From: Salinibacter altiplanensis
GTDB lineage: Bacteria > Bacteroidota > Rhodothermia > Rhodothermales > Salinibacteraceae
Length of the DNA stretch: 64,000 nt
Direction: 5' to 3'
Assembly: GCF_002894645.1 (NCBI RefSeq)
Contig: NZ_NCQY01000020.1
Location: 241,474-305,473 of the forward strand
Numbering within the stretch: position 1 is the first letter of the stretch; each line of letters starts with the position of its first letter. The translations under genes and the position numbers were made by a program. Shown here piece by piece: positions 33,658 to 40,035 of this stretch. Below the pieces are notes generated by a model. The model made no database searches. It had not been told where the DNA came from and saw only the letters and a list, made by a program, of their open reading frames with translations.

Positions 33658-34692
33658 TTGGTCGTGGAAGCACCCGCTCCCCAACATTCTCCGCCCGATT
33701 CTCGGGACCCGGACCTGTCCATCGTCGTGCCGGCGTACGAAGAGGCCCGGTCGCTCCCCGAGCTTGCCGACGGGGTGCGGGCGGCGTGCGAAGAGGCGGG
33801 CCTCTCGTTCCGGCTGTGGATCGTCGACGACGGGTCGCGGGACGAGACGTGGGCGACGGTACAGGGCCTCTGTGAAAAGGATGCCCGTATCGCCGGCCTT
33901 CGTTTCCGCCGCAACTACGGCAAGTCCGCGGCCCTGGCCGTTGGGTTCGACCGGGCGCAGGGGCGCTACGTCGCCACCATGGACGCGGACCTGCAGGACG
34001 ACCCGAACGAGATCCCGGCCCTGCTCGATGTGCTCCGAGAGGGGGACCACGACCTCGTAAGTGGCTGGAAAAAGGACCGCAAGGACCCACTCAGCAAGAC
34101 CCTCCCCAGCCGGTTCTTCAATTGGGTCACGCGCCTCTTCTCCGGCCTGCCCCTGCACGACTTCAACTGCGGCCTGAAGGTGTACCGCCGTGAGGTGGTC
34201 AAGAGCATTGACGTCTACGGCGAGCTGCACCGATACATTCCCCTCCTCGCCAAGTGGGAGGGCTACGATCACGTTGCCGAAAAAGAAGTGCGGCATCATC
34301 CCCGCAAGTACGGCACCACCAAGTTTGGCGTAGAGCGCTTCGTTCAGGGGTTTCTCGACCTTATCACGGTCGTCTTCCTCACCCGATACGCCGTGCGGCC
34401 CATGCACTTCTTCGGCTCAATGGGCACCGGGGCGTTTGCCCTTGGCTTCTTGGTAAGCCTGTGGCTGTCGTTCGACAAGCTCGTGCTCGGGCACCCCATC
34501 GGGGACCGTCCGCTGCTGCTGTTCGGGGTGCTGCTCATCCTGTTCGGGTCGCAGATGTTCACCACGGGTCTGCTGGGCGAGATGATCATCCGTCCGCGGA
34601 TGGAGGACCCGTCGACCTACGAGGTGGCGGAGGCGGTTGGGCCAATTGAGGAATTGGCATCTAAAGACCCCTCAACATCTGTTGAGGGATAG
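33658..34692 (+). CDS. polyprenyl-phosphate glycosyltransferase-like GT2 with two C-terminal membrane helices
   Basis: Encodes 344 residues from a TTG at 33658; a GTG at 33664 is the alternative. The GT-A domain has LSIVVPAYEEARSLPEL, IVDDGSRDETWA and the DxD in TMDADLQDDPNE. KVYRREVVKSIDVYGELHRY is typical of the DPM1/ArnC/GtrB group that charges polyprenyl phosphate with a sugar. Two membrane helices follow (FFGSMGTGAFALGFLVSLWL and LLLFGVLLILFGSQMFTTGL). The final 17 codons (GPIEELASKDPSTSVEG) are AT-richer than the rest and overlap two hairpins, so the natural C-terminus may have been altered where the retron island begins. It ends 3 bases from the convergent reverse transcriptase gene. 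Confidence 0.88.
   Translation: MVVEAPAPQHSPPDSRDPDLSIVVPAYEEARSLPELADGVRAACEEAGLSFRLWIVDDGSRDETWATVQGLCEKDARIAGLRFRRNYGKSAALAVGFDRAQGRYVATMDADLQDDPNEIPALLDVLREGDHDLVSGWKKDRKDPLSKTLPSRFFNWVTRLFSGLPLHDFNCGLKVYRREVVKSIDVYGELHRYIPLLAKWEGYDHVAEKEVRHHPRKYGTTKFGVERFVQGFLDLITVVFLTRYAVRPMHFFGSMGTGAFALGFLVSLWLSFDKLVLGHPIGDRPLLLFGVLLILFGSQMFTTGLLGEMIIRPRMEDPSTYEVAEAVGPIEELASKDPSTSVEG
34641..34688. repeat. two adjacent inverted repeats at the GT2/retron junction
   Basis: GCCAATT-GAGG-AATTGGC at 34641-34658 is a perfect 7-bp stem with a 4-base loop. CCCTCAACA-TC-TGTTGAGGG at 34669-34688 is a perfect 9-bp inverted repeat (8 bp with a 4-base loop in practice). Both lie inside the last codons of the GT2 gene, just before the end of the convergent reverse transcriptase gene. 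They may form a bidirectional terminator or mark the island boundary. No long T run follows on either strand, so termination is uncertain. Confidence 0.55.
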
Positions 34693-34695
34693 CTC

Positions 34696-36438
34696 TTAAC
34701 TATCAACTCTCTCTTCAATCTCTGAGAGTAGGTCAAATATTCTAGCAAAAGGTTTGAAGTTAATATCATCAAAAGGTGGCTCTTCATTTAATATATATTC
34801 GGCAAAATCATTTTTTGAAAGAGAGATATTTTCATTTTCTTCGTTGAATACGCGATCATCTATAATTCTGTTTTCATCTCCAGTTTTGTTTAAGAGGCTA
34901 CAATTTATTTTGGCCTCTTCTTTGTGTTTTCCAGACGTTTTATGAAACTCTTGGCCTAAGAAAATTCTTCGGCTGTTGCCGTCTCTTTTTAAAAGATCAT
35001 CATCTTCGTAGTAAAGCTCAATAGAAATATTGACATCCTCTCTGTGTGGGGGAGGGGGTATAGCAGCTGAAAAAACATTATTTCCCCAGCTACGAAAAGA
35101 CTGATCGTCCTCCGTAACCTCTTGTACTTGGTTTGGTTGGTCCCTGTCGAATAAGAATACATGGGCGTGCTGATGCTGGCCCTCGGACTCTGAGGTGTGT
35201 CTACACTTTTCAAGTAACTCGTCGTCTCCTCTGTCCGACTCAGTCTCATTAAATTCGAGGTCAGGAAGCTCTGAACTCTGATTTACAGCAAGTTCTCGGA
35301 TGGCTCGTTTTAGATGCTTCCAGTCAGTCTTCCCTTCCGTGTACACTATAAGTTTTGAAGTATCATTTTCAGGTTCTTCTTGATTGTCAATATTGATGGG
35401 AGTATTGCTCAATCTGGAGTACTCAGTGAGGTATTTTTTGTAAATCTTGTCATCCTTTCCGCGCACCATAGAAAGAAACTCAAGCTTCCCGCGTATCACC
35501 CTCGAAAAGACCGGTTCCTCCTTCTCCGATTTCCTATTCTTCGTGTCGTACTCGCGAAGAAATTCTTCCTCAGCCGCCTCATAGCCGTGAGCCTTCCAGG
35601 CGTGTAGCATGGCGCGAATCTCCCGAACGAACTCTCTTGGCACATTTACCTTCTCATTCACAATGAGACCCGTCACCATCTGTCGGTAGTCTTCATGCTG
35701 TAGACGGGTTTTATCTTCGTTCAACTCAAATCCGTTTTTGTCCACTACTTCTCGCAATTCCTTACCGACCTTCACATTGCCATCCTCCCCCCCAGTCGCC
35801 AATTCGTCTGGAAACTGACGCATTGAAGTAGAGAAGGTGAGATCATCTGCGTAGCGGGTATAGATGCATTTGTTGCTTTCTGCGAGCCGGAGGAGTTCAC
35901 TATCCAGTTGCGCACAAAGCATGTTCGAGACAATGGGGGATGTGGGGGCACCCTGCGGCAGCCTGTTGTTGTGACAGCAAATTTGTGCGAGTACAGTTGC
36001 TACATCTTCCGGTAGTTCGTACGGCACTGCCTGAAGGAGTCCCCAGACGCGACCGTAATTAATTTCATGAAAGAAGTCCTTTAGGTCGACACAGAAGACG
36101 AAGCGCTGCTTTACGTGCTGTTCAGCATTTGTTCTGATATTTCGGTCGGGCAAGAAGCTGTGGACTGCAGCTTTAGGGGTGTAGACGGCCTGCAGGATCT
36201 GATTAAGCTTCTGCTGTATGATTTTTAGAGCAGAAACAGGCGCTGAAATTTCTCTTTCACCACCACCCGACTTGTCAAGGGTAAATGTTTTGTAGCGACC
36301 TTCTTCTGGAGATTCGCGAATATGATAAATTAGGTTGCTGGACTCAACATCCAGAAGGTCCGCTACGTCCTCAAGATCTTCGAGGTTATGGAAGTCATTC
36401 TGAAGCTCCTCTTCAGAAGCATCGAGAGATATGCTCAC
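34696..36438 (-). CDS. retron reverse transcriptase fused to a C-terminal TOPRIM-like domain
   Basis: Encodes 580 residues from a GTG. Retron-type marks are NAEQH at 104-108 (NAxxH), VDLKDFFHEI at 117-126, LPQGAPTSPIVSN at 160-172, the catalytic YADD at 196-199 and VTG at 255-257. After the thumb (about 265-345) a second domain starts: LIVYTEGKTDWKHL has E368 and VFLFDRDQP has D431 and D433, the E...DxD pattern of TOPRIM nucleases. The RT copies msd into a branched RNA-DNA; the TOPRIM part is the likely effector. E. coli retron Ec67 has, to my knowledge, the same RT-TOPRIM plan and similar length, and acts against phage. The gene is visibly AT-rich compared with its neighbours, a sign of transfer. 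The msr-msd-like RNA lies 42 bases upstream. Confidence 0.88.
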   Translation of the reverse strand: MSISLDASEEELQNDFHNLEDLEDVADLLDVESSNLIYHIRESPEEGRYKTFTLDKSGGGEREISAPVSALKIIQQKLNQILQAVYTPKAAVHSFLPDRNIRTNAEQHVKQRFVFCVDLKDFFHEINYGRVWGLLQAVPYELPEDVATVLAQICCHNNRLPQGAPTSPIVSNMLCAQLDSELLRLAESNKCIYTRYADDLTFSTSMRQFPDELATGGEDGNVKVGKELREVVDKNGFELNEDKTRLQHEDYRQMVTGLIVNEKVNVPREFVREIRAMLHAWKAHGYEAAEEEFLREYDTKNRKSEKEEPVFSRVIRGKLEFLSMVRGKDDKIYKKYLTEYSRLSNTPINIDNQEEPENDTSKLIVYTEGKTDWKHLKRAIRELAVNQSSELPDLEFNETESDRGDDELLEKCRHTSESEGQHQHAHVFLFDRDQPNQVQEVTEDDQSFRSWGNNVFSAAIPPPPHREDVNISIELYYEDDDLLKRDGNSRRIFLGQEFHKTSGKHKEEAKINCSLLNKTGDENRIIDDRVFNEENENISLSKNDFAEYILNEEPPFDDINFKPFARIFDLLSEIEERVDS

Positions 36439-36480
36439 GGAGTGAGGTCAGGTAGAGATGGGTGAGTGAGACATAGAAAA

Positions 36481-36689
36481 AGGGTCAGTGAGCCTGTTCG
36501 ACAATTCCCACCTATCCGGTCGCGGAGCCGAGGCAAATATGGGCCATCGTCGCGCCGGAAATGTTGAGAGTAGAAAATGCCAGGATTCTAATCTGGCTAT
36601 TCGGTGACGGAGCCCGTATGGCTACCCGTACACTGAATCGTCGCGTATCAACGACGAAAATCAATTGCCGCATCAGGCTCACTGACCCT
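36481..36689 (-). ncRNA. putative retron msr-msd RNA
   Basis: The region is bounded by a perfect 16-nt inverted repeat: AGGGTCAGTGAGCCTG at 36481-36496 and its reverse complement at 36674-36689. These fit the a1 and a2 arms that pair in retron primary transcripts. Inside, reading on the minus strand from a1, there is a 6-bp stem with an 8-base loop (plus 36638-36643 with 36652-36657). A second hairpin is built on AGCC/GGCT around 36609-36628. Then come a GCCA...TGGC hairpin near 36579-36597 and a longer stem CCGG-t-CGCG / CGCGCCGG (36516-36524 with 36551-36558). The first two suit msr and the last suits the msd arm. The branching guanosine cannot be fixed, though an AGC in a1 is a candidate. 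It is placed directly upstream of the RT gene, as in known retrons. Confidence 0.78.
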
Positions 36690-36747
36690 GATTCTCTACT
36701 AAGAAAATGTAAGAGGGTGTTGTGAGTTTCCTGATTCAATTGCCCTA

Positions 36748-37656
36748 TCAAGAAGCTGCCACTGTGCTAGGTAGTACTTTGAGAAGCGTCTCGACCACCG
36801 CGTTGAGGAGACGCTGCTTGTGCCGGCGCCGGGTCACGAAACGGACGTTCCGGGTGGGCGGAGGGTCAGCGAAGGGCACGACGAACGTTGCCCGCTCCGC
36901 CTCGGGCATGTGGTGCGTGGCGAGGCGGGGCAGAAGGGTCATGCCCCCGCTGGTCCGGACGAGGCGCACCAGCGTCTCCAGGGAACCGCTCTCGAACTGC
37001 GCGGCGGCCTGAGGGGCGGACGGGGCGCGGCCACACACCTGGAGCACCTGGTCGCGAAAGCAGTGGCCCTCGCTCAGAAGCCACAGGTCTTCGATGGAGA
37101 GGGCCGTGGGCCCCAGGGACTCGCGGTCGGCAAGGCGGTGGGACGGAGCGACGTAGCCGACGAAGGGCTCCGTGAACAGGACGCGGTCGTGAAGGCCCGG
37201 GCCGGCCTCGTCCGTGGCGATCAGGGCCGCGTCGAGCGCATCGGTCCGAAGCGCGTCCAAGATCTCGGTCGTGGGCCACTCGCGCAGGACGAGGGACACC
37301 TCCGGGTACGCTGTCTCCAACGAGGGGAGGACAAGGGGCAGGAGGTAGGGCGACAGCGTCGGGAGCATGCCGAGGCGAAGGGTGCCCGTGACCCGGTCTT
37401 TTACCTCCGCGGCGGTGGCGGCGAGTCGATCCCGAGCGGCGAGCACCTCTCGGGCCTCGTTCACGATGGACTCGCCGGCGGCCGTGGGCACCACCGGCTG
37501 GTGACTCCGGTCAATGAGCTCCACGTCCAACTCGTCCTCCAGCCGCCGCAGTTGGCCGCTGAGGGTGGGCTGGGTCACGTTGCACGCCGCGGCCGCGTCG
37601 CCAAAGTGGCGGTGCGTGTCGAGGGCCACGAGATACTGCAGTTGCGAGAGCGTCAT
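36748..37656 (-). CDS. oxyR: LysR-family peroxide sensor OxyR
   Basis: Encodes 302 residues. The N-terminal winged helix has LSQLQYLVALDTHRHFGDAA and NVTQPTLSGQLRRLEDEL. The effector domain carries the redox pair Cys199 and Cys208 in EGHCFRDQVLQVC, the same residue numbers and spacing as E. coli OxyR, so this is a peroxide-responsive activator rather than a generic LysR. Oxidation forms a disulfide and switches DNA binding. It is divergent from katG, and the operator at 37675-37711 lies just upstream of the start. The in-frame ATG at 37683 would put coding sequence inside the operator, so 37656 is preferred. Its 3' end lies about 60 bases from the retron RNA. Confidence 0.93.
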   Translation of the reverse strand: MTLSQLQYLVALDTHRHFGDAAAACNVTQPTLSGQLRRLEDELDVELIDRSHQPVVPTAAGESIVNEAREVLAARDRLAATAAEVKDRVTGTLRLGMLPTLSPYLLPLVLPSLETAYPEVSLVLREWPTTEILDALRTDALDAALIATDEAGPGLHDRVLFTEPFVGYVAPSHRLADRESLGPTALSIEDLWLLSEGHCFRDQVLQVCGRAPSAPQAAAQFESGSLETLVRLVRTSGGMTLLPRLATHHMPEAERATFVVPFADPPPTRNVRFVTRRRHKQRLLNAVVETLLKVLPSTVAAS

Positions 37657-37674
37657 CGGATGGGGGTCTTTCTG

Positions 37675-37711
37675 ATAGGGCAAACCTATTAAGAATATAG
37701 AGACGATCGAT
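37675..37711. promoter_or_regulatory. tetrad OxyR operator between oxyR and katG
   Basis: Four quarter-sites at exact 7-base spacing: ATAG 37675-37678, CTAT 37686-37689, ATAG 37697-37700 and CGAT 37708-37711. The E. coli consensus for oxidised OxyR is ATAG-N7-CTAT-N7-ATAG-N7-CTAT, so only one base differs. It is 19 bases upstream of the oxyR start and about 75 bases upstream of katG, suiting both autoregulation and katG activation. Confidence 0.82.
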
Positions 37712-37743
37712 TTGAATAATCAAGTCTGGGGCCGTACCTTTAG

Positions 37744-40035
<2,292 letters not shown>

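What the first reader, a model, noticed from the sequence alone, without database searches (positions are those of the whole stretch)
36481..36689. Predicted msr-msd RNA with a perfect 16-nt a1/a2 pair
The two arms at 36481-36496 and 36674-36689 are exact reverse complements, longer than many described a1/a2 pairs. Between them lie two short hairpins on the a1 side and a longer bulged GC stem (36516-36558) on the a2 side, as expected for msr followed by msd.
Basis: seen in the sequence. Interest (0 to 1): 0.7.

Follow-up and report, generated by a model that had tools for sequence, protein, structure and literature searches.

The report
Retron RNA beside RT-Toprim defence gene
This is the template RNA of a retron, a bacterial anti-phage system in which a reverse transcriptase fused to a nuclease-like domain copies part of its own RNA into DNA; it is a well-supported but fairly ordinary new member of a known kind.

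Summary
The 16-nt arms 36481-36496 and 36674-36689 are exact reverse complements, the longest such pair in the window. The minus strand between them folds far better than shuffles (z -7.9). The gene just downstream on the same strand (34696-36438) encodes a 580-aa reverse transcriptase fused to a Toprim domain, with every catalytic residue of the Retron-Eco2 (Ec67) Toprim conserved. A covariance model built only from 15 relatives, window left out, finds this interval as its single hit in 64 kb (E 2.7e-7). Three helices show compensatory change across relatives. So the msr-msd reading is supported, with corrections: the a1/a2 stem is about 24 bp, not 16; the priming G is probably 36662; three hairpins precede the GC stem, and some probably lie in the reverse-transcribed part. 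The RT groups outside the Ec67 clade, with RTs fused to protease, Mrr, Schlafen or nothing, and the Ec67 curated profile is not met. The cassette is a ~2.1-kb insertion missing at the same place in a sister species. It most likely works like Retron-Eco2: an RNA-DNA complex holds a Toprim nuclease in check until phage infection. RNA, msDNA and defence were not tested.

The parts
36674..36689 (-). a1, outer arm (16 nt)
   Evidence: exact reverse complement of 36481-36496; covarying helix 1 in relatives
36481..36496 (-). a2, outer arm (16 nt)
36663..36670 (-). a1, inner stem CGGCAATT
   Evidence: folded pairs; inner helix 2 conserved as NNATT/AATNN with four Watson-Crick pair types at one position
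36499..36506 (-). a2, inner stem AATTGTCG
36662..36662 (-). probable branching (priming) guanosine
   Evidence: inference: G directly after the inner stem and before ATTTT + hairpin, the place of rG15 in Eco2 (PMC12405507); same layout in most relatives, missing in L026 and L038
36639..36656 (-). msr hairpin 1, loop TTGATAC-like
   Evidence: fold; covarying helix 3 and conserved TTGATCC-like loop in relatives
36599..36638 (-). second, bulged hairpin containing TAGCCATA (36624-36617), the likely msr/msd border
   Evidence: fold; counterpart of the relatives' TAGCTTTA motif; border is inference
36579..36597 (-). third small hairpin, probably inside msd
   Evidence: fold
36515..36559 (-). long bulged GC stem of msd
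   Evidence: fold
36508..36616 (-). inferred msd template, at most about 109 nt
   Evidence: inference from the Eco2 layout (PMC12405507) and motif alignment; neither end measured
35404..36438 (-). RT domain (residues 1-345; NAxxH 104-108, YADD 196-199, VTG 255-257)
   Evidence: Pfam RVT_1 1.2e-21; motifs
34696..35361 (-). Toprim domain (residues about 360-580) and stop codon
   Evidence: E368, D372, D431, D433, S472, E474, K542 align with the Eco2 catalytic set; full-length fold match to Eco2
34641..36765 (.). approximate inserted cassette, GC about 0.33-0.53 against 0.6-0.7 in the flanks
   Evidence: absent at the same site in same-genus genome G004; composition

Best explanation
The interval is the msr-msd RNA of a retron whose RT and effector are one protein, RT-Toprim. 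Shown here: the conserved, covarying RNA, its fixed place upstream of the RT gene, and an RT-Toprim protein with intact catalytic residues. Inferred from Retron-Eco2: the two ends of the transcript pair over about 24 bp, placing G36662 next to the RT; the RT starts DNA synthesis from that G's 2'-OH and copies the template from about 36508 to about 36616; the resulting RNA-DNA hybrid stays bound and keeps the Toprim nuclease inactive. Phage attack that damages or removes the DNA releases the Toprim, which cleaves nucleic acid (RNA in Eco2) and stops phage growth.
For: Perfect arms beyond chance; fold z -7.9. Leave-window-out model hits only this interval in the window, E 2.7e-7. All 31 model hits in 81 sources lie on the RT strand just upstream of the RT gene. 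92.7% of cells paired against 35-43% when slid, 18 of 20 pairs with changes on both sides; the hand-structured alignment without the window gives the same picture. PADLOC RT-Toprim_I-C, E 3.2e-158 over residues 24-577. AlphaFold model (pLDDT 90.8) best matches Eco2, Z 34.0, 488 residues. Toprim catalytic residues conserved. Mechanism of Eco2: PMC12405507.
Against: No transcript, msDNA or phage data. NCBI's Ec67 profile scores 371 against a cut-off of 450, and the RT groups outside the Ec67 clade, so Eco2's trigger, substrate and trimer may not carry over. The RNA model does not match Ec67-group loci. Two relatives lack a G at the proposed priming place. The model-fitted alignment A6 leans towards its structure; A5 was trimmed on parsed arms. 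pTM is only 0.65, so the relative placement of the two domains is uncertain.
Confidence: 0.9

Rival explanations
1. It is a retron RNA, but the functional borders differ: only the GC stem 36515-36559 is reverse transcribed, and the first three hairpins are all msr.
For: The GC stem is the most msd-like single hairpin, and Eco2 has one long DNA hairpin (PMC12405507).
Against: The relatives' TAGCTTTA motif, which sits where Eco2 reverse transcription ends, aligns in the window at 36624-36617, upstream of the third hairpin.
Confidence: 0.3
2. The system is a decayed or silent retron: the parts are recognisable but no longer make msDNA.
For: Found in only one of 13 genomes of the genus; no consensus promoter found just upstream.
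Against: The 580-aa frame is intact with all RT and Toprim catalytic residues, and the 16-bp arms are perfect. The sigma-70 scan does not cover other promoter types.
Confidence: 0.08
3. The inverted repeat is not a retron RNA but an attenuator, terminator or mobile-element end that happens to lie before an RT gene.
For: Long perfect inverted repeats also occur in such elements; the cassette is a horizontally gained insertion.
Against: Homologous RNA with compensatory changes upstream of related RTs across phyla; the arms do not mark the cassette ends.
Confidence: 0.02

Closest known systems
Retron-Eco2 (Ec67), type I RT-Toprim, PMC12405507; PDB 9lm3, 9i2f, 9s1f
   Same: RT and Toprim in one protein of about 580 aa; same Toprim catalytic residues; layout a1 - G - ATTT - hairpin ... 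a2 in Ec67-like loci.
   Different: 24-29% identity in the fold alignments; RT in another clade; below NCBI's Ec67 cut-off; RNA not matched by our model; longer interrupted a1/a2 stem; more hairpins; inferred msd up to 109 nt against 67; priming G in TTGA, not CAGA.
PADLOC RT-Toprim_I-C profiles PDLC02965 / PDLC02968
   Same: Whole protein matches, E 3.2e-158, residues 24-577 of 580.
   Different: The profiles describe the protein only.
RT-Toprim of Herpetosiphon aurantiacus plasmid pHAU01 (L020/L026)
   Same: 44% identity over the full length; homologous upstream RNA.
   Different: Arms differ in sequence, shorter RNA, no G at the proposed priming place.
RT-Protease_XI and RT-TIR_XII retrons
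   Same: RT domain in the same broad clade; protease-fused L041 and L042 carry the same RNA.
   Different: Effector domain.

Membership tests
Retron | retron-type RT with YADD, NAxxH and VTG motifs | tested here: met
   Motifs at 196, 104 and 255; Pfam RVT_1; PADLOC retron RT profiles.
Retron | structured msr-msd RNA with paired ends a1/a2 next to the RT gene | tested here: met
Retron | priming guanosine at or next to the inner end of a1 | tested here: inconclusive
   G36662 fits and is conserved in most relatives, but L026 and L038 lack it.
Retron | branched RNA-linked msDNA is made | not testable with these tools
   Needs msDNA extraction and sequencing.
Type I-C RT-Toprim retron (PADLOC sense) | RT fused to Toprim, whole-protein profile match | tested here: met
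   PDLC02965 E 3.2e-158, residues 24-577.
Type I-C RT-Toprim retron (PADLOC sense) | Toprim catalytic residues (Eco2 E374, D378, D460, D462, S513, E515, K562) | tested here: met
   E368, D372, D431, D433, S472, E474, K542.
Type I-C RT-Toprim retron (PADLOC sense) | anti-phage activity | not testable with these tools
   Needs plaque assays.
NCBI retron Ec67 family (NF038237) | profile score at or above the curated cut-off of 450 bits | tested here: not met
   371.2 bits, best stretch residues 15-389.
NCBI retron Ec67 family (NF038237) | RT groups with Ec67 RTs | tested here: not met
   Ec67-like RTs form a group of 15 with 100/99 support, window outside it.
Rfam RNA families | match to any of 4227 models | tested here: not met
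   No match up to E 1 in 34500-37700.

The most novel reading that the evidence does not exclude
The RT and RNA here belong to a module separate from Ec67's: priming from a TTGA context off a long interrupted stem, with one RNA design serving many exchangeable effectors (Toprim, protease, Mrr, Schlafen, stand-alone). The Toprim would then have been gained apart from Ec67's, and the trigger and activity might differ from Eco2's. A single origin of the Toprim fusion is not ruled out by the tree.
Probability: 0.35. Interest if true: 0.5.

Novelty: new member of a known kind. Interest (0 to 1): 0.35.

Why it matters
It gives a specific RNA model, with testable pairs and a candidate priming site, for a retron lineage whose RNA is not in Rfam and whose members span the window's group, Balneolota, cyanobacteria and Chloroflexota. 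A conserved RT-RNA module carrying different effectors allows a direct test of whether effector control is portable. Otherwise it is a good example of a known defence type.

Tried and rejected
Rfam scan of the window and of eight related loci: no retron family matched. Single-protein scan of viral contigs: no relative found; the alignment query worked. DNA search of the RNA in plasmids: one chance match. The automated arm parser failed or gave poor arms for several distant loci (for example L027, L039, L044, L046, L049, L051-L056, L059), so these were not used to build the model. The model did not match Ec67-group loci, so Ec67 kinship of the RNA is argued from layout only. The Mestre 2020 classification paper is not held, so whether this lineage's RNA was already predicted there could not be checked. 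Searches for papers on retrons in Salinibacter and on I-C subtypes gave nothing useful. MAFFT of the window against the empty site misplaced the ends; the flanks were compared directly.

Full report
Observation. The arms 36481-36496 and 36674-36689 are exact reverse complements and the longest inverted repeat of span up to 300 nt in the window; first-order Markov random sequences gave about 0.017 pairs of at least 16 nt. The minus strand folds at -105.2 kcal/mol, z -7.9. The fold shows the 16-bp arms, then an 8-bp inner stem 36670-36663 / 36506-36499, three hairpins (36656-36639, 36638-36599, 36597-36579) and the bulged GC stem 36559-36515.

Surroundings. The next gene on the same strand, 34696-36438, encodes 580 aa. 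Pfam sees the RT; PADLOC matches RT-Toprim_I-C over residues 24-577 at E 3.2e-158; the closest solved sequences are Retron Ec67. The AlphaFold model, built with 47 relatives (mean pLDDT 90.8, pTM 0.65), matches Eco2 best by Foldseek and VIA-align (Z 34.0, rmsd 9.7, 488 residues). The Eco2 Toprim catalytic residues listed in PMC12405507 align with E368, D372, D431, D433, S472, E474 and K542; this is my reading of an alignment that contains Ec67-like proteins, not Eco2 itself.

Insertion. The cassette has lower GC than its flanks. In the genus, the glycosyltransferase gene on one side is matched in all 13 genomes and the LysR-type gene on the other in nine, while the RT is found only in the window's genome, apart from one weak RT match in G007. 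In G004 the two flanks lie next to each other without the cassette; in G010 and G003 the matched parts of the two genes are about 90 bases apart.

Relatives. Scans gave 80 loci from genomes and 80 from viral contigs. Inverted repeats of 9-16 nt lie upstream of many related RTs, with different sequences. Reading these regions showed a common layout: outer arms, a short linker, an inner stem ending in ATT paired to AAT, usually a G, about four bases, a hairpin with a TTGATCC-like loop, a TAGCTTTA-like motif, a variable part, then GAAT and the second arm.

Covariation. A covariance model was built from 15 relatives without the window. In the window it has one hit up to E 10: 36679-36489 minus, 41.3 bits, E 2.7e-7. 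In 81 sources it has 31 hits up to E 1, all on the RT strand and just upstream of the RT gene; the weakest are partial and near chance. Pair counts: 92.7% of cells paired against 35-43% when slid, 137 cells changed on both sides against 20-34, 18 of 20 pairs with such changes. The alignment without the window gives 89.4% and 53 cells against 37-47% and 11-20. A6 is fitted to the model, and A5 was trimmed on parsed arms, so both lean towards the structure; the leave-out hit in the window does not have that weakness.

Mechanism. In Eco2 the branching rG15 follows a1 directly and is followed by AUUU and a stem-loop (PMC12405507). The window has the same order: inner stem ...GGCAATT, G36662, ATTTT, hairpin. 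This makes G36662 the likely priming base, but L026 and L038 lack a G there, so G36671 in the small internal loop remains possible. Aligning the TAGCCATA motif with the place where Eco2 synthesis ends puts the DNA 3' end near 36616, giving at most about 109 nt. These ends are inference. Inhibition by msDNA and activation on phage infection are taken from Eco2.

Classification. The RT tree separates 15 Ec67-type Toprim RTs (100/99) from 51 others, among them the window; the window's exact place among those is unresolved, and one origin of the Toprim fusion is not excluded. NCBI's Ec67 profile scores 371 of the required 450, and the RNA model does not hit Ec67-group loci. It is therefore a retron by its protein and RNA, and an RT-Toprim retron in the PADLOC sense, but not filed in the NCBI Ec67 family. 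Rfam has no model for its RNA. Whether the Mestre 2020 or PADLOC RNA models cover it could not be checked.

Noticed in passing
L036:2983-4563: RT of this clade fused to a Schlafen AlbA_2 domain (Pfam E 2.3e-12), with the same upstream RNA.
   Followed up: partly
L035:3001-4581 and L038:2329-3903: RTs fused to an Mrr-type restriction endonuclease domain, with the same upstream RNA.
   Followed up: partly
L043:2989-4944 and L023:2405-4663: RTs of this clade with a C-terminal part weakly like methyltransferases (L043) or an AAA_5 ATPase (L023); both have an RNA model hit upstream.
   Followed up: no
L021 and L022: Cyanobacterial plasmids with a stand-alone RT of this clade, the RNA, a hypothetical gene and an ATPase gene in a row: possible multi-gene retrons.
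   Followed up: no
window 34669-34691: Inverted repeat CCCCTCAACA-TCTG-TTGAGGG between the converging glycosyltransferase and RT genes, near the left end of the cassette; the glycosyltransferase C-terminus differs from that in the sister genome.
   Followed up: no
window 36748-40035: Divergent LysR-type regulator and catalase-peroxidase-like gene beside the cassette, resembling an oxyR-katG pair; only the regulator was checked by profile.
   Followed up: no
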